A DNA stretch of 59,157 nucleotides from a virus, in IMG/VR virus record IMGVR_UViG_3300046804_004972, positions 1 through 59,157 of that record; one strand, written 5' to 3'. Position numbers and translations under genes: made by a program. The notes under the pieces were generated by a model that was given only the letters and a program-made list of their open reading frames with translations, was not told the DNA's origin and did not search any database. Positions 7,069 through 55,553 of this stretch are shown one piece after another (position 1 is the first letter of the stretch; each line of letters starts with the position of its first letter).

Positions 7069-8154
7069 TCAATTCTCACCACGCATATGTCTTTCAGACT
7101 CTCTTGATTTTATTAACGCTTGTCCAGTGTTTTGTTTTCCCGGAATGTAAGTATGAGCAGAACCAGATTTTCTTTGATTTTCTTTATTAAATTTTTTTTG
7201 AAGATATTCTGTTCTCTTGGTTTCTTCAACAATACTCTGCTTCCATTCTTCACTCATGTTTGCCATAATAGCTATTGCTGCCTCATTTGTATCCGCATAA
7301 CCTTCGGCAACTAGGTGTTCTAGGATATGCTCAAACATATCCTTACCACCCTTTTTAGGGACTTTACCCCTTTTCTTCAATCTAAACTGAGCTGTAGCTG
7401 TTCTAATTCTTGATTTCCAGAAATCCATATCCTTATCATACTGCTTCTTATCAACTTTTGGGTATTGAGTTTCTTTTGGTTCACCCATTTCACCTCTTCC
7501 CATTCTGCTATCATGGCCCTCTTCAAGTTTCTTTGATGCAACATAACCCTGAAGTTCTATTTCTTCACCAGTAAAACCCTTTTTAAATTGTCCAGCAGCT
7601 TTTTTAACTTTACCTGCAGTTACGGCAGTTGCTGCTTTCATTTTCTGCAGTTCACCCATAGCAGCATTATGTCTTGCAATTCCTCTATCAACAGCACTTA
7701 CAACACGATCAAAAATACCTGGTTTCTTTGGTTGTTTCTTTGCAGCAGTAGCAACTGCAGATTGTCTTTGTAGGGATGCCTTCAATCCAGATGGTTTTGA
7801 TGCGGATGCTTTTTCTTCTGCGGATTTTCTTGCTTCTTTTTGAGCACGAAGTCTAGCAAGAGATTTGCCAGTTGGTTTTCCAGATTTAAACTTTTGTCCT
7901 TTTGCAGTTACAGGTTCAATTCTTGCACCACCTGCTCTTGCTTCTGCTAAAACATACTCTTCAGAAATATCATAAACAAACTCGGCAAATTCTTCTACAC
8001 CAAGTTCTTCAATTAAAATATCAACACCATCTTCGTTCAAACCCATTTCATAGAAATAATGAGCAGCAATTGTAACTTCTTCATTAAGTTCTTGCTGTGG
8101 AGCATAAACTGAAACATATGCTTCCATCAATCCTCGAATTTCCTTACTTTCCAT
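7069..8154 (-). CDS. basic, Ala/Lys-rich late protein of unknown function
   Basis: A 361-aa protein of a cyanophage family without a known role. Residues 1-85 are acidic and helical (with segments such as AAHYFYEMGLNEDGVDILIE). A long Ala/Lys/Arg-rich region follows (about 90-200: K-P-T-G-K-S, S-G-L-K-A-S-L-Q-R-Q, K-K-Q-P-K-K). A C-terminal part with MDFWKSRIRTATAQFRLKK and FEHILEHLVAEGYADTNEAA forms a small helical domain seen in other marine phage proteins. The gene lies alone between two terminators, behind a perfect TATAAATA late promoter, so it is probably made late and may be packaged, for example as a DNA-binding internal head or injected protein. That role is inference. Confidence 0.6.
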   Translation of the reverse strand: MESKEIRGLMEAYVSVYAPQQELNEEVTIAAHYFYEMGLNEDGVDILIEELGVEEFAEFVYDISEEYVLAEARAGGARIEPVTAKGQKFKSGKPTGKSLARLRAQKEARKSAEEKASASKPSGLKASLQRQSAVATAAKKQPKKPGIFDRVVSAVDRGIARHNAAMGELQKMKAATAVTAGKVKKAAGQFKKGFTGEEIELQGYVASKKLEEGHDSRMGRGEMGEPKETQYPKVDKKQYDKDMDFWKSRIRTATAQFRLKKRGKVPKKGGKDMFEHILEHLVAEGYADTNEAAIAIMANMSEEWKQSIVEETKRTEYLQKKFNKENQRKSGSAHTYIPGKQNTGQALIKSRESERHMRGEN

Positions 8155-8182: not shown

Positions 8183-8324
8183 AAAAAGAAGCATCTCTAT
8201 TTTTGAGATGCTTCTTGAGTGCTTGTCTTCGTGCTTTTGCTTGTCTAATTGCTTGAGGTTTCTTCTTCCCCTTGTCGTTCCTCCGAAATGGAGTACGACC
8301 ACTCTCCCAGATTTTGTGTCTCAT
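8178..8324 (-). CDS. small very basic protein (48 aa), tentative
   Basis: ATG at 8324 opens a 48-codon frame beginning MRHKIWESGRTPFRRNDKGK and ending in a run of K/R/A/Q (PQAIRQAKARRQALKKHLKN). It is strongly basic with no acidic patch, as in small nucleic-acid-binding phage proteins. It overlaps the 51-aa gene in another frame, and its last codons lie within the terminator hairpin. No clear Shine-Dalgarno is present (CAGAG at moderate distance). The protein-like composition at the C-terminus is the main support; it could still be a chance frame. Confidence 0.4.
   Translation of the reverse strand: MRHKIWESGRTPFRRNDKGKKKPQAIRQAKARRQALKKHLKNRDASFL
8182..8216 (-). terminator. intrinsic terminator after gp46 and small genes
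   Basis: Minus-strand 12-base-pair stem AAGAAGCATCTC / GAGATGCTTCTT (8186-8197 with 8205-8216), 7-base loop, with the T-run overlapping the distal stem. It ends the uvsY-to-gp46 transcription unit. Confidence 0.85.
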
Positions 8325-12011: not shown

Positions 12012-12407
12012 TTAATTACCTTTAAAGATCTTCTCTAAAATCTCTTTAGCATCATTAACGTTAGATATATATCCCATTCTACGACTTATCTTTGATTGAT
12101 TATTTTTTTCTTTATTTGATTGTCTTAAATAAGTTTGATACATTGATATCATCTCAACATCAAATGACTCGGATAAAGTCATGACATCTTCTAAGTTTAA
12201 AATAAACATATCTTCAGTGGTAGTTTTTAACCATGGTTCCATTTTATATCCGTATATTCCATTTCTACTTTTTATTTCCGAAATAGTGATGGGATTAGAA
12301 ACAATCAAAAAAGTTCTATCTTCTTCTTCCGATGCTGCTATTTTAGCAAATATTTCTTCACCTGATTTTAATTTAAGTGTTGCGTAAAAATCTTCTTCAA
12401 TTCCCAT
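12012..12407 (-). CDS. conserved hypothetical after uvsW
   Basis: A 131-aa protein found in this position in cyanophages, function unknown. The N-terminal half is strand-rich (FYATLKLKSGEEIFAKIAAS, then FLIVSNPITI), resembling a small barrel such as an Sm-like fold; that is inference. The C-terminal third is polar and helical. Its start overlaps the end of uvsW by 11 bases, so it is translated from the same mRNA. After its stop comes the 109-base gap holding the two back-to-back promoters. Confidence 0.6.
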   Translation of the reverse strand: MGIEEDFYATLKLKSGEEIFAKIAASEEEDRTFLIVSNPITISEIKSRNGIYGYKMEPWLKTTTEDMFILNLEDVMTLSESFDVEMISMYQTYLRQSNKEKNNQSKISRRMGYISNVNDAKEILEKIFKGN

Positions 12408-13869
12408 TTTTCTTAAGTTGAATTGTGATTATCTCGTAATTAAAATTCTCTTCATTATAAATTTTAATTCTTTCAATTAAATGATTTAAAGTATAATTTT
12501 TTCTTGAGTTGTAAGTACAGTCATCAGCAATATCATAAAGAACTGCTTTGGTTTTATTTTTTCCTTTTCTTAATACTCGTCCAATTGATTGTAAATTCCT
12601 AATTCTTGATTTACTTGGTGATGCAAATATTACATTATGCAAATTTTTGATGTTAATTCCTGTAGAAAATGTTCCATAAGAAGCAACAATTATTGCATTA
12701 TTTTCTCTTTCAGTAATTTCTCTGACCAATTCTCTTTCTTCAGTATCAACTCCACCATGTACAAAAAATACTTTACGGTTTTGTTGCTTTGTATTATTTA
12801 TCTTTTCATAGAGTATTGCTCCATGTGCTTCTACTCTACTAAAAAGAACTAGAGTGTTACCTTTTAGATCTAAAGCAAGATTGGTAATAAATTTATTTCT
12901 TTGTTCATGAGAAATTAAATATTGAATTTCATCTTCATAAGTTTCAAATTTTTGAGGGGAATGTTTTAATACAATACATCTAATATCCAATTGAGATAAA
13001 TGTCCCTGTCTCATTAACTCGTCGGTTCTAGTAACTTTATATGACGGTCCAAACAAACCTTCTAAAACCCACTTATGCGTTTGAGTTCCGTCAAGAGTTC
13101 CTGTAAATCCAAATCTATATTTTGTATGATGAAGTTTTGTCATAATATCTACAAGTGATTTGCTCTTGAATAAATGTGCTTCATCACCTATAATGCAATC
13201 ATATCCTTCAAAAAATGAACGTTCTAACTTGTATACAGATTGCCAAGTAGTAATTGTGACTGGATGTTCATTTGTTTTTTCTCTACCCGAATAAATGCGG
13301 TGACAATATGACTCAGCATCCCAACCATAATCCTGGAAATCCTTGTATATCTGCTCTACAAGAGATGTCGTTGGAACAACTAAAAGAATTTTTTGCCCTT
13401 TATCCACATAATACCGCACGAGGGCGTAAATCATCAGACTTTTTCCTGACGCAGTGGGACTTATCAATAACTTTCGATTATGTCGTAGGGCATCATATAC
13501 TCCCTCTATTTGATAATCTCTTGGAGAATGAGCACAAATAGATTGCATATAATCTTTAACACCTTCGTATGAGATGTTCTCATTCACCTCAAATGGTTGA
13601 CCATAAAATTTATTTTCTTTAAACTCATATTTGTAATTGTGATTGCTTAGTTTATCAATTACTTTAGGAAGCAATCCTGCATAGATTTCTCCAGTATGAG
13701 TGCTGAGTAAACGAATCTTTCCGTCCCAGTGCCTACTTCTATACTGAGACATAAATTTTGCAGATTCTACTTCAAATGTGAAATATGGTTGAAGTTCGTA
13801 GAGAATGTGTGGTTCACAATGAAGTTTTAAAAATACTTCGTTTTTCTTTTCAATAATTACGTCACTCAT
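12397..13869 (-). CDS. uvsW: UvsW-like DNA/RNA helicase
   Basis: A 490-aa superfamily 2 helicase (T4 UvsW 503 aa) that unwinds R-loops and branched recombination intermediates and shifts replication from origin-dependent to recombination-dependent mode. Motif I is SPTASGKSL (about 135-143), motif II D-E-A-H (about 229-232), motif III GFTGTLDG (about 254) and motif VI QSIGRVLRKG (about 424-433). The N-terminal domain (residues 1-90) includes KFMSQYRSRHWDGKIRLL, typical of UvsW. The start codon lies in one arm of a 10-base-pair inverted repeat whose other arm overlaps a late promoter, which suggests late-only translation. Confidence 0.93.
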   Translation of the reverse strand: MSDVIIEKKNEVFLKLHCEPHILYELQPYFTFEVESAKFMSQYRSRHWDGKIRLLSTHTGEIYAGLLPKVIDKLSNHNYKYEFKENKFYGQPFEVNENISYEGVKDYMQSICAHSPRDYQIEGVYDALRHNRKLLISPTASGKSLMIYALVRYYVDKGQKILLVVPTTSLVEQIYKDFQDYGWDAESYCHRIYSGREKTNEHPVTITTWQSVYKLERSFFEGYDCIIGDEAHLFKSKSLVDIMTKLHHTKYRFGFTGTLDGTQTHKWVLEGLFGPSYKVTRTDELMRQGHLSQLDIRCIVLKHSPQKFETYEDEIQYLISHEQRNKFITNLALDLKGNTLVLFSRVEAHGAILYEKINNTKQQNRKVFFVHGGVDTEERELVREITERENNAIIVASYGTFSTGINIKNLHNVIFASPSKSRIRNLQSIGRVLRKGKNKTKAVLYDIADDCTYNSRKNYTLNHLIERIKIYNEENFNYEIITIQLKKNGN

Positions 13870-13890
13870 AGCATTTGTATTGCTATGAGT
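13864..13890 (-). promoter_or_regulatory. inverted repeat enclosing the uvsW start codon
   Basis: ACTCATAGCA / TGCTATGAGT, a perfect 10-base-pair stem with a 7-base loop. On the minus strand the 3' arm contains the uvsW ATG (13869-13867). The 5' arm begins at the end of the late promoter core, so RNA started there (about 13884) would lack most of that arm. Confidence 0.6.
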
Positions 13891-13899
13891 ATTTATTTA
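13890..13899 (-). promoter_or_regulatory. late promoter for uvsW
   Basis: Minus-strand TAAATAAATA, close to the T4 late core TATAAATA, 21 bases upstream of the uvsW ATG and overlapping the end of uvsY. Confidence 0.5.
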
Positions 13900-14334: not shown

Positions 14335-14879
14335 AATGGTTTTCCAGTTAAATCAACTATATCGTAAATAGTATACTTGAAACTTACGTCTGCTGTAAAG
14401 TAATTAATATCGGTATCTGTTGCATCAAATGTTAACGTAGAGAGAGTATAAGGAAATAAATCTCTAAAAACAACTTGAAAATTTGGTATTTGACTACTTG
14501 TTAAAACTTGTAATGTTCCGTCAGAATAAATATTTTCCTTATCGTTTGCATAATTACCTTGAATGAATCCTCTTCTTTCAAGATCACTATATTGTGTTAG
14601 TACTTCTGGGAATCCTAATCCACGAATCCAATTTTGAATGCACATATAATTTTCAAGATTTTCATCAACCAAAAATCTTATAGTCAAATCTCCAAATTCA
14701 ATGATTTCACCAGGATTTGGTAATGGTTTTAAATAAGATGGTTGCAAAGCAACACCTAGGTTTAAATCAGGAATATTTGCTTGATTGCAAAAGAATGCAA
14801 CTTTAGGTTCTCTTGAGAGAGTAAACTTAAATCCTGTTGGGGATAAAAAGTTTCTATTATCTATCTGTCCTCTAGTCAT
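14331..14879 (-). CDS. 3: tail completion / tube-fold protein at the gp3 position
   Basis: A 182-aa protein located between gp23 and uvsY, where cyanophages carry the gene annotated gp3 (tail tube terminator and sheath stabiliser). The sequence has a tube-like pattern: N-R-N-F-L-S-P near the start, then PKVAFFCNQANIPDLNLGV, a G-D-L-T-I-R-F strand and W-I-R-G-L-G-F-P. These resemble the gp19 tube-fold family. It could be a tube-fold relative (gp48/gp54-like) rather than a strict gp3 homologue. A TCTAAATA element at 14899-14892 may start its transcription, right after the gp23 terminator. Confidence 0.7.
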   Translation of the reverse strand: MTRGQIDNRNFLSPTGFKFTLSREPKVAFFCNQANIPDLNLGVALQPSYLKPLPNPGEIIEFGDLTIRFLVDENLENYMCIQNWIRGLGFPEVLTQYSDLERRGFIQGNYANDKENIYSDGTLQVLTSSQIPNFQVVFRDLFPYTLSTLTFDATDTDINYFTADVSFKYTIYDIVDLTGKPL

Positions 14880-14900: not shown

Positions 14901-14927
14901 AAAAAAAGAGGGTCCGAAGACCCTCTT
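14901..14927 (-). terminator. strong intrinsic terminator after gp23
   Basis: Minus-strand stem AAGAGGGTC / GACCCTCTT with a TTCG tetraloop closed by C-G, followed by an uninterrupted T-run of seven. A second small inverted repeat (TTATGTG / CACATAA, 14935-14956) overlaps the gp23 stop just before it. Confidence 0.9.
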
Positions 14928-20843: not shown

Positions 20844-22527
20844 TTTCACCACCTTTGGGCATCTCAGCTGCTTTTGCATTTATTTGAGTTGCTTTATTGT
20901 CTGCTCCCAGATCCGGTTCCATTACTGGTTGACCAAGATCCATTTGAGAAGTTTGATCTAGAGGTAAACCAGTTGCAGGATCAATAGGAATGCTTGGATC
21001 TGGAATAACCCCATCTTTAATTTCTTTTTTAATAATTGCATCCTGCTCAATTATTTCAATATCGGTTTGACGAAGAATTTTACGTCTTACATAATCTTGA
21101 GAGAAATATTTTCCAACATAAGGTTCTGCAATTTGTACCATTGACAATCTTTCATTTAGCAACTCTGCATCTTTTAGTTCTGCAAAGTGGTTGTCATATA
21201 GGAAATCATATTGAATATGCTCATCCATTTGCTGCCAATCTTCTGGAGTGATAATGTTCTTGAGAATCAATTGCGTTCTCAACATATCACTAAACATATA
21301 TGAAAATCTCTTTCTCAATCTTGCAACAAACTTGCTGAACTTAACTTCATCACGAAGAATTTCCGATGAACGTCCAAGATTAAAACCACCTTCTCCATCC
21401 ATTCTTGAGGGAGGAACGTTTAGAGAACGATACAGTTTCTTCTTGAAGTATTCAATATCAGTAATTTCTCCAAGATTCTGACCACCAGGAAGTGTGGAGA
21501 TCTCAGTTCCTCTACCACCTTCTCTTCTTGGAAGCCAAAAGTCTTCAAGCATTGCCATAAACTTACGATCATCACGGATTTCACCAGTGTTTGCATCATA
21601 TACAAGTTTATTGCGATAACGCATCATAACATCACGAAGATATTGTTCTGCTTTTACTTTTGGTAGATTACCTACATCAATGTAGAAAATTCTACGTTCT
21701 GGAGCACGAGACAATCTGTAAATTACGAGTGAATCCTCAATCATACGAAGTTGATTGAGAGATTTAATTGCTTTATGGAGATAAGAAAGAGTTGATCCTT
21801 TATTTCTATCTACGAGACCTGAAGTGCAATATGTGATAGAATCCTTAGTCATTCGGATCCCGGAGTTTGAACCACCCATCGTTCCAGGAGCAGGTGTTCC
21901 TGTTGGGTAGGTCATTTTTGGTTCATAGATGAAATATTCTTCAATCTCAGGAAAGTCATAATCCATAGGATTATCAACCATTCTATTTGAAACGTTATAT
22001 TTGTTTGCGTCTTTTTTCTTTCCTTGACGCACATAACGCATTTTCATTGCGTCAATATACCTCAATTCCTGGATTCCTGCCTCAGGATTTTTGAGATCAA
22101 TTAATTTATGGTAATAAAGTCTACCATCAACATACCAATTTCTATAGATTTCGTGTGCCTTCTTATCAAAATCTAATAATTCTAAAATATGTTTAAATTC
22201 TTGTCTGATTTTCTTTTTAATACCATCACTAGCATTTAGATTGTCCAAATCAATTTGAACAGGACTGTCGTTAGTGTCTGCTACAATTGCTTCGTTAACA
22301 ATATCTTCAATAGCACTATCACATTCCGGATGAAGTGCCATTTCTCTGTATCTTTTAATAAGATCAAATTCTGTTCTATAAACACCTTCAATATCTACAT
22401 ACGAACCAAAAAAACCACTACTCAAATAATGGTCAACCCCGTCCTCTTTATTGGGAGGAACGGGGGAAACAACATTTGGTGATAATGGTTCGTTATCTTC
22501 AATTGAAAAACCAAAAAGTTTTGCCAT
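20839..22527 (-). CDS. 20: gp20-like portal vertex protein
   Basis: A 562-aa portal (T4 gp20 524 aa), the dodecameric ring through which DNA enters and to which the neck attaches. Segments I recognise from cyanophage gp20 include YREMALHPECDSAIEDIVNE (about 60-80), LSRAPERRIFYIDVGNLPK and NVPPSRMDGEGGFNLGRS (about 370). The C-terminal 60 residues are Pro/Asp/Gln-rich and variable. The gene is preceded by a late promoter placed inside a long hairpin. Confidence 0.97.
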   Translation of the reverse strand: MAKLFGFSIEDNEPLSPNVVSPVPPNKEDGVDHYLSSGFFGSYVDIEGVYRTEFDLIKRYREMALHPECDSAIEDIVNEAIVADTNDSPVQIDLDNLNASDGIKKKIRQEFKHILELLDFDKKAHEIYRNWYVDGRLYYHKLIDLKNPEAGIQELRYIDAMKMRYVRQGKKKDANKYNVSNRMVDNPMDYDFPEIEEYFIYEPKMTYPTGTPAPGTMGGSNSGIRMTKDSITYCTSGLVDRNKGSTLSYLHKAIKSLNQLRMIEDSLVIYRLSRAPERRIFYIDVGNLPKVKAEQYLRDVMMRYRNKLVYDANTGEIRDDRKFMAMLEDFWLPRREGGRGTEISTLPGGQNLGEITDIEYFKKKLYRSLNVPPSRMDGEGGFNLGRSSEILRDEVKFSKFVARLRKRFSYMFSDMLRTQLILKNIITPEDWQQMDEHIQYDFLYDNHFAELKDAELLNERLSMVQIAEPYVGKYFSQDYVRRKILRQTDIEIIEQDAIIKKEIKDGVIPDPSIPIDPATGLPLDQTSQMDLGQPVMEPDLGADNKATQINAKAAEMPKGGEI

Positions 22528-22535
22528 AATTTATT

Positions 22536-22580
22536 TTTAACCTTATACAATAGTCGTTTTGACTATTTATTAAGGTTAAA
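22536..22580 (-). promoter_or_regulatory. long hairpin between gp19 and gp20 covering the gp20 Shine-Dalgarno
   Basis: Outer arms TTTAACCTTA (22536-22545) and TAAGGTTAAA (22571-22580) pair perfectly (10 bp), and inner arms AATAGTC / GACTATT (7 bp) close a 5-base loop, with a 3x3 internal loop between. On the minus strand the 3' outer arm carries AAGG, the only Shine-Dalgarno-like run before gp20. No T-run follows, so it is not a plain terminator. Confidence 0.65.
22564..22572 (-). promoter_or_regulatory. late promoter for gp20, nested in the hairpin
   Basis: Minus-strand TAATAAATA. Expected start is about 22558, inside the hairpin loop, so RNA from it lacks the 5' arm and leaves the gp20 ribosome site open. 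Confidence 0.55.
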
Positions 22581-55400: not shown

Positions 55401-55553
55401 AATATTTTGGAGGATGTCTAACACACCTCCTTGATTTTCTAAAGCAATATAATATTGCTTTAGAAATTCTGATACTAAAGGAAACTCATCCTGAACAAAT
55501 AATGGAAGTTGATTCTCAACTATTAAACTGGTTTTTACTCTTGTATTTGTCAT
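43473..55553 (-). CDS. 7: giant gp7-like baseplate wedge initiator with YHYH domain
   Basis: A 4026-aa protein in the gp7 position (T4 gp7 1032 aa), the first wedge subunit. The N-terminus has the tail-protein pattern LPLFVQDEFPLVSEFLKQYY. Residues of about 1240-1360 hold a YHYH-type domain (WSYDGNPIYGPYGY, then L-D-E-H-N-G-R-Y and Y-A-Y-F-C). Repeated beta modules with G-x-x-Y-x-x-x-P-x-I/L-x-I and A-x-A turns occur at about 744-801, 1101-1158, 2081-2174, 3334-3481 and 3758-3838. Many other strands of the type I-G-I-S-T-x-x-V recur throughout. The C-terminus ends KRYNPLRYIGYSTS. The reading frame is unbroken over 12 kb. It is flanked by gp6 (4-base gap) and gp8. Confidence 0.82.
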   Translation of the reverse strand: MTNTRVKTSLIVENQLPLFVQDEFPLVSEFLKQYYIALENQGGVLDILQNIDQYVKVDNLTNLVESTILQKDVSIFDTSIDVVSTYGFPERYGIIKINNEIITYTSKTSTSFQGCIRGFSGISSLKNNNEISEVVFESTNSSDHVSGDIVTNLSILFLKEFFKKAKTLITPGFENIEFFSGLNEKTFIKQSKDFYSLKGTDESFKILFGALYGEQVNVIKPRDYLIRPSDSQYRITKDLVVQEIKGDLLKLLNKTIYQPSQQGLNFAYGTVTNVQFFNKNNKDHYVLSIDYDYDKDINVTGSVYGNFKIHPKTKLISNATSSQDYLDVDSTVGFPDSGQLIVDLSNGTQVTINYKSKSLTQFFECSGIDQDILESQDIFLNVYASNYEDPENVTSNDLIKFRITGVISDLVYDDNGKYFAKDDEIYIKTLGENLTDIRSRSFLHNISVSYKISSFKGEGNNNNLKYSFRTFDNNIINVGDRILLSYIAKLPSGINDQVDEIIIVNGINIIKKEFSTITRYPVVDAFTAKRLLSKSTFISYPELSEKYSSNVLNSYKDSDNNFYVYSASLPYYQSDLSAKKKEVTFGGLLAESNILFVKNHGFFTGDSVKYSYTNSTNRIVNLSERRYFVEKIDNDRIKIYNTRGDIYTAKNLGKNTSITLFSVGQVPENTNKLTLFSNSEQEINTSKIIRKFSNPQQLKTVQEIQPGFVGMFSNGVEILSHKSKDSVYYGPIEKIDVLNSGKDYDVINPPSLDIIDGVGYGATAVVSVSGTLKRIEIIDQGHDYLETPIISISGGNGSGATAKCNLISYDHIVNFNASQFKGSVSLDDDTISFSTYHRFRNYEKVVYQTNGGETLVGLSTNSQYFINIQDAFTVKLHKTFDEAASGINTVGISSFGSGIHSLRSTTKKKKLGSISIENEGLNYSNRKNIVYSSGINTAKNTINSPNHGYSDGEIISYSYSQTQISGLSSTSYYVKKLDDNEFYLCQIGVGKTAKDFYYKTNQFVNLKSSPTGQHIFNYPEIQVTINGLTGVSTFTPGNQNAVINPIFRGSITSVSLDSKLKTGSDIGGFNYGSIDIINYNHQPTFNLNSGLNAQLTPIISNGRIVEIVVENQGYGYSSSPNLEIIGDGNGAVLTPIIKNGFITSVKVISGGVGYNKGTFINVSSAGSGAKLYAQIKSWNVNEFEKNINYINLKEGGLFVPSLNKNNLQYCHLYLPENLRKILFSQTFFEGEIKYISDLANDDPLNTKKNHSPIVGWSYDGNPIYGPYGYSDPLSETSNVSPLRSGYIRKESSQEDPNRPPFAVGFFIDDFEYKGIGDLDEHNGRYCVTPEFPNGTYAYFCPLDVSTGIPQFPYIIGKTYKNLPIEFNYDSKSTDEFIDLNSENWKRNTNPYNLTEKNSNYNYIEQPNKITEQITKINSTFSGSIDSLEIKTGGFNYRVGDVVSFDNEGTGGFGAAADVDSIVGKDIDSIFYSRETLNNVKFFEDRSFNGIIAISTEPHNLKYNDIVSISGLSTSKTNLYGNFPVSIVSNTLKLTVGVASTAITGIVTYFEVTGNLNYPYIIENDIVGIGTEKVKILSIDKNNSRIKVLRSYDNTVGSSHSISDFIFEFPRKFLLNVLETNSNSVLDREFYFDPSETLGIGSSQGVGIGYTLQFSNPGFGITSIFIPTKTLYLPNHNFTTGDELIYSNNGGNSISISTNGVSSFNLPDQSTVYVAKVSNDLIGISTFKVGLSTTGTFVGVDSSKRNNGTLFLLGTGTGTIHSFKTKYNNTITATVDKIVATITTKTAHDVSYAEIIDVDVISGISTTYKVLYNDVNSRVVFNPRTFSTSNVDASKNTITINNHNYKTGTKVIHTSTSPSGGLLNDEIYYTVVIDKNTIKLASSYYNCTQVPAIEVDINSASGGTIAEVNPNIFAYKNGSVIFDLSDPSLSFIQNSQRYSAFKLEIFTDKNFVNKLNTKNITRVSEPGLTNASLILKIDENIPNILYYNLIPSNPNRLIDVPTIKKSLISDSENVTNNNIITKVSSKYSGTQIVSGITSNTISYYIADIPESSSYSSSSSNLAYYARTGFSSGPIHSVRMTNGGKNYKTLPGISSIVSIDGYGAILIPNSSNIGKIKSVNIIDYGFDYSSDNTIRPSSNLPISLKIDPLNSVKSVNILSPGKNYTTAPDLVLIDGFTNQVVKDAVFNYSIEKNKVTIVQNTKGIYSAPPRIVPINNSNASKIKNIGFNTTTKDVTVTLDVGFLSGFSTASDFPFVVGDKILIENTTVSTASTGYKFRGYNSENYSYEFFTIKSIDPNIGGVNPSIVFNLSDYFSGTNIPGVFNPLKSSGRVVAEKYLPVFDIELSKNEFYIGENVSSDKDSIGKVQSFDNKNDYLKISTKEIFKINDIIKGKSSASKAIITDIIKYDSDYLLNSTSIVRSGSKTSTGFLNDNTQRMHNNDYYQYFSYSLQSKVSYDRWDSVVNSLNHTVGFKKFSDLVIESTPTFISGECDLVSGICTDQNLGKVITTSDIISSANLNCVYDFDLVTENSIDLGNKIVSDQIKFDSKVIQDYIESSGNLVLTIDDVSSQFDSNPRDEVFSVVDEFSSSLSNYRKYFILIEDTFFTDNKQFNIISLLQDGSFSFFNQYGRVETKNDMGSFDFRIFGSRGQLLFYPQNFTSEDYNISYVSFNLNNSSIGIGTTQLGDTVKIEHYKSDLNVGYASTTVVGIATTFRTSKLLVEVKSIDSSYFEVDEINLIHDNSNVYISEYGQLDNDLLNPQSISGIGTFNAYIDSNLIKVDLIPSVGVTTDYTINTISVSIANTSSVGVGTHTLTTTKISSSITPISSSASPIANTVATIKNPSNGAYLLASVEDKTNNRYQMCELVVVNSTIDTYITEFGTVVTDSSIGVFSSSLFGSDLNVNFTPNPNINVEVRCFINSLNQPDANATESEIVFGDSNIESGFNVYIGTLNDVKRSFYVTHKNLPIFHRYFLGNNSQIVDTTRNIIKIPDHFFRTGEKISYLYDGYQTSTQNAIGIGTTTIPGIGSTDKLPRNVYAVKINDYEIKLASTAENALKLVPEVLDLTFVGLGTNHRLISYNENNRVLISIDNMIQSPLVSTSTTTHLLEDVGFTDTLIKISNVDNVFSENLLNINDEIMRVSAVGVGTTNVIRVQRKAVGSELKVHNANSLITKVYGNYNIVDNVINFVDPPYGPNPIGTITNGPDDRDYSGITTHSTFSGRVFCRSSAVNSSNDPYSTNYIFDDISNQFTGIKTDFSLKVGGSNVTGISTSNAILLIKDIFQGPENSDISPVVGNYYLEEKSGITSAYFKGTGISTAYDVNTSGVPIGGVIISVGSTSGFGYQPLVSAGGTAIVSIAGTIQSISIGNSGSGYRSGIQTVRVAVTTSSLETPNLHFVGTASISNGNIVSVAITNPGTGYTSTNPPIVIFDSPLSYSNIPLKYSSVSSGFGTEAVVNVVVGQGSSIVDFEIINSGYNYRIDDILTIPIGGATGIPTDSSKPFNEFRISVDQIYNNKFASWTIGDLQIFDDFSNEFDGFKRSFQLKLDGLPISILAKENSKINLSSNLLVFINDILQVPNQSYVFDGGSIITFTEAPKPAEENWGGDTLKIYFYRGTSNIDTRDVDILETVKIGDDLRIYDNTENLTENSRSIDIINSSNTVITNTYPGPGISNDEFYSRPIIWCKQTEDRVINGRSVGKDREMYEPSIEPTTNIIQNVGIGSTIIFVSSVKTFFDNERENASNKFISKIRIISQEPKVGAYATAIVSAAGSISYLDLISSGIGYTNAPTVSISSPVGVGTTARFSTTISNGSIVGITTLEYGSNYSQSNPPSVLIEHPTPIIETIEEVNYEGDFGVISGISTGTLVGIASTAIIFDLHIKNDSFLRNVNVVGTAITLSQLQTGYYFIVYNSNVGNGIISLNESNSIVGVGTTFLDNIYKVSSVSIATTNVAGIGLTFVAKVAVAVSSYNGLTGLGYSSFYGEYSWGRISFLQGYRTSPKEFTISNTNGIVGLETAPIIKRYNPLRYIGYSTS

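What the first reader, a model, noticed from the sequence alone, without database searches (positions are those of the whole stretch)
13864..13899. Third nested case: uvsW start codon inside a 10-bp hairpin downstream of a late promoter
The uvsW ATG is in the 3' arm of a perfect 10-bp stem. The 5' arm overlaps the end of the late-promoter core TAAATAAATA, so a late start (about 13884) loses most of it. UvsW in T4 is made late, when replication switches to recombination mode, so blocking translation from uvsY read-through RNA makes sense. Three independent cases in one window suggest a phage-wide regulatory strategy.
Basis: partly seen in the sequence, partly recalled or inferred. Interest (0 to 1): 0.7.

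Follow-up and report, generated by a model that had tools for sequence, protein, structure and literature searches.

The report
Hairpin timing switch at cyanophage uvsW
In marine cyanophages, the start signal of the late DNA helicase gene uvsW is folded into an RNA hairpin that only the short, late-made messenger escapes, so the protein is probably kept off until late in infection; the trick is known from a few genes of phage T4 but I found no report of it for this gene or this phage group.

Summary
On the minus strand a perfect 10-bp stem (11 with a closing U·G) spans 13891-13863; its 3' arm contains the uvsW AUG (13869-13867) and its 5' arm starts in the last bases of the late promoter TAAATAAATA (13899-13890). 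A late transcript starting near 13884 keeps 4 of the 11 pairs.
It is far from chance and is selected as RNA: 283 of 286 stem cells pair in 26 distinct relatives, with compensatory changes and with G·U, rather than A·C, as the tolerated departures. The same promoter and start sequence in front of other genes (37 cases) never has such a stem; 35 of 37 uvsW leaders do. Several cyanophages (e.g. P-SSM2) have unrelated stem sequences in the same place. A sigma70-type promoter just before uvsY, conserved at synonymous sites inside gene 3, supplies the read-through RNA that the model needs.
It is the known T4 scheme (genes e, soc, 49, I-TevI) on a new gene and phage group, hence a new member of a known kind. 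The 'phage-wide strategy' claim fails: uvsW is the only start in the window with it.

The parts
13890..13899 (-). T4-type late promoter core TAAATAAATA (contains AATAAATA); overlaps the uvsY stop codon
   Evidence: NATAAATA is the late promoter motif given for cyanomyoviruses (PMC2984593)
13881..13891 (-). 5' arm of the hairpin, U-ACUCAUAGCA; mostly upstream of the predicted late start
13863..13873 (-). 3' arm UGCUAUGAGU-G, containing the uvsW start codon AUG (13869-13867)
13874..13880 (-). 7-nt loop, variable in relatives
13884..13884 (-). predicted late transcription start (6th base after the promoter core); inferred from T4 spacing, not mapped
   Evidence: TATA box about one helical turn upstream of the start; inference
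12397..13869 (-). uvsW, helicase, 490 aa
13897..14334 (-). uvsY, recombination mediator, co-oriented and 27 nt upstream
14370..14399 (-). sigma70-type promoter TTTACA-18-TATACT inside the 3' end of gene 3, upstream of uvsY: likely source of read-through RNA
   Evidence: -10 codons TAT ACT are the only two of 124 scored gene 3 codons with no synonymous variation in 67 loci

Best explanation
It is an RNA timing switch. RNA that reads through uvsY (from the sigma70-type promoter in gene 3) contains both arms, folds the uvsW AUG into an 11-pair stem, and is not translated into UvsW. Once the phage's late sigma factor directs transcription from TAAATAAATA, RNA starts at about 13884, inside the 5' arm. 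Only about 4 pairs remain, the AUG is free, and UvsW is made late. Shown by computation: the stem, its conservation and covariation as RNA, its restriction to uvsW, the nested promoter motif, and the conserved upstream promoter motif. Inferred: the exact late start, read-through past uvsY, the translational block, and the benefit (avoiding early UvsW, which in T4 unwinds origin R-loops).
For: Fold -13.9 versus -2.1 kcal/mol for the predicted late RNA; AUG accessibility about 0.001 versus about 0.7. Leader has no Shine-Dalgarno sequence, and SD-less cyanobacterial genes tend to have weak 5' structure (PMC6847405). 26 distinct leaders: 99% of cells paired, 0 of 500 shuffles as high; both-side changes at two pairs; sliding the pairing by 1-3 columns collapses it. 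Departures other than the invariant closing U.G: 11 G.U, 1 A.C, 2 other. Same promoter and ATGAGTGA start: 35 of 37 uvsW leaders have at least 7 nested pairs and -7.8 kcal/mol or lower; 0 of 37 other ORFs do. Energy lost on late initiation: window uvsW 12.3, top of 131 cyanophage cases; the T4 controls gene 49, I-TevI and soc score 10.9, 5.8 and 5.2 in the same scan. Unrelated stems at the same place in P-SSM2, S-SKS1, Bellamy and others. Where no late promoter is recognisable, mostly with uvsW abutting or overlapping uvsY, the strong hairpin is absent too. Conserved -10 box before uvsY.
Against: No mapped transcript ends or UvsW timing for this phage or its relatives were available. 26 of 78 promoter-bearing uvsW leaders have only a weak or no nested stem by my cut-off, so the device is not obligatory outside the window's clade. 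The 14 loci without a recognisable late promoter apparently make UvsW from uvsY RNA. Six of the 11 pairs never vary, partly because the 3' arm is coding. The two-sided covariation rests on two pairs.
Confidence: 0.78

Rival explanations
1. Translational coupling: the stem makes uvsW translation depend on ribosomes finishing uvsY, whose stop codon lies only 5 nt before the stem; a terminating ribosome would melt the 5' arm and open the AUG.
For: The uvsY stop (13899-13897) is within reach of the stem, and most relatives have an upstream stop just before it.
Against: P-SSM2 has an 8-9 bp stem up to the uvsW AUG although the upstream gene stops about 41 nt before uvsW, outside ribosome reach. The loci in which uvsW most tightly follows or overlaps uvsY have no strong stem. 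Coupling does not explain why the 5' arm lies between the late promoter and its start.
Confidence: 0.1
2. DNA palindrome: an operator over the late promoter bound by a dimeric repressor, as for I-TevI on its own late promoter.
For: The inverted repeat overlaps the promoter; I-TevI autorepression is a precedent for an operator there (PMC2988022).
Against: Variable departures are G.U on the sense strand far more than A.C (11 to 1), which a DNA site would not favour; stem sequence turns over completely between lineages while position stays.
Confidence: 0.04
3. 3' end element: a terminator or RNA-protecting stem at the end of uvsY RNA.
For: It lies directly after uvsY; a pattern scan flags a terminator-like site on the other strand (13864-13890 plus).
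Against: No U-run follows the stem on the coding strand; the stem is A+U-rich; it includes the uvsW AUG; no gene reads toward the plus-strand 'terminator', whose T-rich tail is just the promoter's complement.
Confidence: 0.04
4. Chance or by-product of coding and promoter constraint.
For: The 3' arm is partly fixed by Met-Ser-Asp codons.
Against: 0 of 37 other ORFs with the same promoter and same ATGAGTGA start have the stem; z -5.7; compensatory changes.
Confidence: 0.02

Closest known systems
T4 gene e, soc, 49 and I-TevI late-promoter/hairpin translational control
   Same: Start region held in a helix in long early RNA; a late promoter in or before the 5' strand gives RNA without it (PMC3014915; PMC2988022). 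Gene 49, I-TevI and soc came out of the same blind scan as uvsW.
   Different: Different gene (uvsW) and phage group (cyanomyoviruses); the AUG itself, not a Shine-Dalgarno, is buried, and the leader has no Shine-Dalgarno.
Aeh1 mobE and T4 segB hairpins
   Same: RBS sequestration in read-through RNA (PMC2988022).
   Different: Homing endonucleases, mobile genes; uvsW is a core replication/recombination gene.
T4 uvsW
   Same: Expressed from a late promoter; late UvsW unwinds origin R-loops (PMC3016281).
   Different: In T4 uvsW is on the strand opposite uvsY and behind segE, and no hairpin is evident in the 110 nt before its ATG (by eye).

Membership tests
T4-type late-promoter-nested translational hairpin | Stable helix covering the SD and/or AUG in read-through RNA | tested here: met
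   predicted; AUG unpaired probability about 0.001
T4-type late-promoter-nested translational hairpin | Late promoter placed so that late RNA lacks most of the 5' strand | tested here: met
   TAAATAAATA at 13899-13890; -13.9 to -2.1 kcal/mol. The start position itself is inferred from T4 spacing
T4-type late-promoter-nested translational hairpin | Earlier promoter upstream giving read-through RNA | tested here: inconclusive
   sequence evidence only, favourable: conserved TTTACA-18-TATACT with no synonymous variation in the -10 codons; transcripts not measured
T4-type late-promoter-nested translational hairpin | Structure selected as RNA | tested here: met
T4-type late-promoter-nested translational hairpin | Protein made late only; disruption gives early protein | not testable with these tools
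   needs infection time course or reporter
Rfam RNA family | Match above gathering score | tested here: not met
   none
Intrinsic terminator | G+C-rich stem followed by U-run on the transcribed strand | tested here: not met
   no minus-strand hit here; stem 4 G-C of 10, no U-run

The most novel reading that the evidence does not exclude
Late-only translation of uvsW by promoter-nested hairpins has arisen or been rebuilt repeatedly with unrelated stem sequences across cyanomyoviruses, while sister lineages use a short upstream ORF or uvsY coupling instead, so UvsW timing is under strong and recurrent selection in a phage group outside the enterobacterial T4 relatives.
Probability: 0.4. Interest if true: 0.55.

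Novelty: new member of a known kind. Interest (0 to 1): 0.42.

Why it matters
It carries a textbook T4 timing device into ocean cyanophages and onto the gene thought to switch T4 from origin to recombination-driven replication. It gives a compact, testable leader (arm swap mutants) and suggests that keeping UvsW off early matters. It also supplies a conserved sigma70-type promoter before uvsY, a handle on cyanophage early/middle transcription, which a 2010 review called still unclear (PMC2984593).

Tried and rejected
The 'phage-wide' idea was tested and rejected. Rfam: nothing. A two-codon AUG-CUA-UGA ORF overlapping the uvsW AUG in the window was considered and dropped, because relatives lose its AUG by changes that keep the stem (L016, L019, L021). 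Terminator and DNA-operator readings were rejected as above. No paper in the held library was found describing a hairpin at uvsW (two papers hold all three terms; one was searched and describes no uvsW hairpin, the other was not opened), nor mapped transcript starts near uvsW in a marine cyanomyovirus; the Syn9 transcriptome paper cited elsewhere (Doron et al. 2016) did not come up in searches. Three rows (L018, L021, L022) used a wrong upstream in-frame ATG; one search has the right start.

Full report
What is there. The window is a 59-kb IMG/VR record of a T4-like cyanomyovirus; its uvsW region matches Synechococcus phage S-SM2 best. Minus-strand order is gene 23, gene 3, uvsY, uvsW. Between the uvsY stop (13899-13897) and the uvsW ATG (13869) lie 27 nt. 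This stretch, with the stop, carries the late promoter core TAAATAAATA and a 10-bp perfect stem, 11 pairs with the closing U.G, whose 3' arm holds the ATG.

Is it more than chance? Its fold is the most extreme of 40 gene starts in the window. Perfect stems this long with short loops are expected 0.6 times in the window. The best control is natural. A scan of IMG/VR for TAAATAAATA-N12..30-ATGAGTGA, which does not specify the 5' arm, returned 37 distinct uvsW leaders and 37 leaders of other ORFs (a few of those ORFs are too short to be genes). 35 of the 37 uvsW leaders have at least 7 nested pairs at -7.8 kcal/mol or lower; none of the others does.

Is it RNA? In 26 distinct leaders with identical spacing, 283 of 286 cells are standard pairs; permuting arms never reached this in 10,000 trials, nor did 500 column shuffles. 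Pairs 11-35 and 18-28 show changes on both sides; tree reconstruction gives several separate changes at each. The variable departures are G.U 11 times and A.C once, which favours RNA of the coding strand over a DNA palindrome. Caution: six pairs never vary, and the count of pairs with two-sided change (2) is reached by 27 of 500 shuffles.

How far does it reach? In the window's clade it is close to universal. Beyond it, cyanomyovirus uvsW leaders with a late promoter lose a median 8.8 kcal/mol (ATG starts, 35, the window's clade included) or 3.1 (GTG starts, 40) when started late, against 0.4 for 124 other late-promoter starts. Several have stems of quite different sequence at the same place: P-SSM2 AUAAUCCUA/UAGGAUUAU, S-SKS1 ACUUAUAG/CUAUGAGU, Bellamy ACAGAUGU/AUAUCUGU. 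By a cut-off of 4 kcal/mol and 5 nested pairs, 52 of 92 loci have it, 26 have the promoter only, and 14 have no recognisable promoter (three rows set by hand). The labels need at least 21 changes on the tree, so gain and loss have been frequent; the cut-off itself adds some of these.

Where does read-through RNA come from? TTTACA-18-TATACT lies in the 3' end of gene 3, 65 nt before the uvsY ATG, in nearly all loci examined. The two -10 codons, TAT and ACT, are 67 of 67 and 59 of 59 identical where the amino acid is kept, the only two of 124 scored gene 3 codons with no synonymous variation. That is good evidence of a selected sigma70-type promoter, though a simple scan of the window alone finds as many such sites as chance gives. 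Its time of use is unknown.

Is it general? No. Scanning all late promoters near starts in the window, S-SM2, six relatives and T4 gave 131 cyanophage cases; the five largest losses of structure among them are all uvsW, the window's (12.3) first. The same scan recovered T4 gene 49, I-TevI and soc, known examples, so it is sensitive to the kind. In the window the other late promoters do not bury a start.

Mechanism and comparison. The anatomy is that of T4 genes e, soc, 49 and I-TevI (PMC3014915, PMC2988022). In T4, UvsW is made from a late promoter and unwinds origin R-loops (PMC3016281); there uvsW is not downstream of uvsY, so no uvsY read-through RNA would reach it. In these cyanophages it follows uvsY, directly or after a small gene, and the hairpin would keep the late timing. 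That last sentence is inference. Translational coupling to uvsY is the main rival; P-SSM2, whose upstream stop is about 41 nt away, speaks against it as the general function.

Noticed in passing
window 14399..14370 minus: Sigma70-type promoter TTTACA-18-TATACT inside gene 3 with no synonymous variation in its -10 codons across 67 loci; a conserved internal promoter for uvsY.
   Followed up: yes
L035, L048, L058 and others, upstream of uvsW: GTG-start uvsW leaders carry a conserved five-codon ORF (AUG ... UGA) whose stop overlaps the GUG start, in 26 of 40; it begins about 2 nt after the predicted late start. Possibly a termination-reinitiation leader.
   Followed up: partly
L029, L032, L040, L051, L055, L062, L068, L247: No late promoter between uvsY and uvsW; uvsW ATG overlaps the uvsY end, suggesting joint expression with uvsY.
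   Followed up: partly
L054, L078 upstream of uvsW: Hairpin with GGAGG in or beside its loop and a TTG start just after the stem.
   Followed up: no
window 14927..14906 minus: Strong intrinsic terminator between gene 23 and gene 3, followed directly by TCTAAATA before gene 3.
   Followed up: no
window 8185..8216: 12-bp perfect stem just upstream of a TATAAATA late promoter for the gene starting at 8154; looks like a terminator followed by a late promoter.
   Followed up: no
window 22527-22571 minus: Late promoter followed at once by AATAGTC-AAAAC-GACTATT, about 20 nt before the start; not over the start.
   Followed up: partly
window 55435..55466: 14-bp perfect stem with a 3-nt loop near the 5' end of the 4026-aa ORF.
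   Followed up: no
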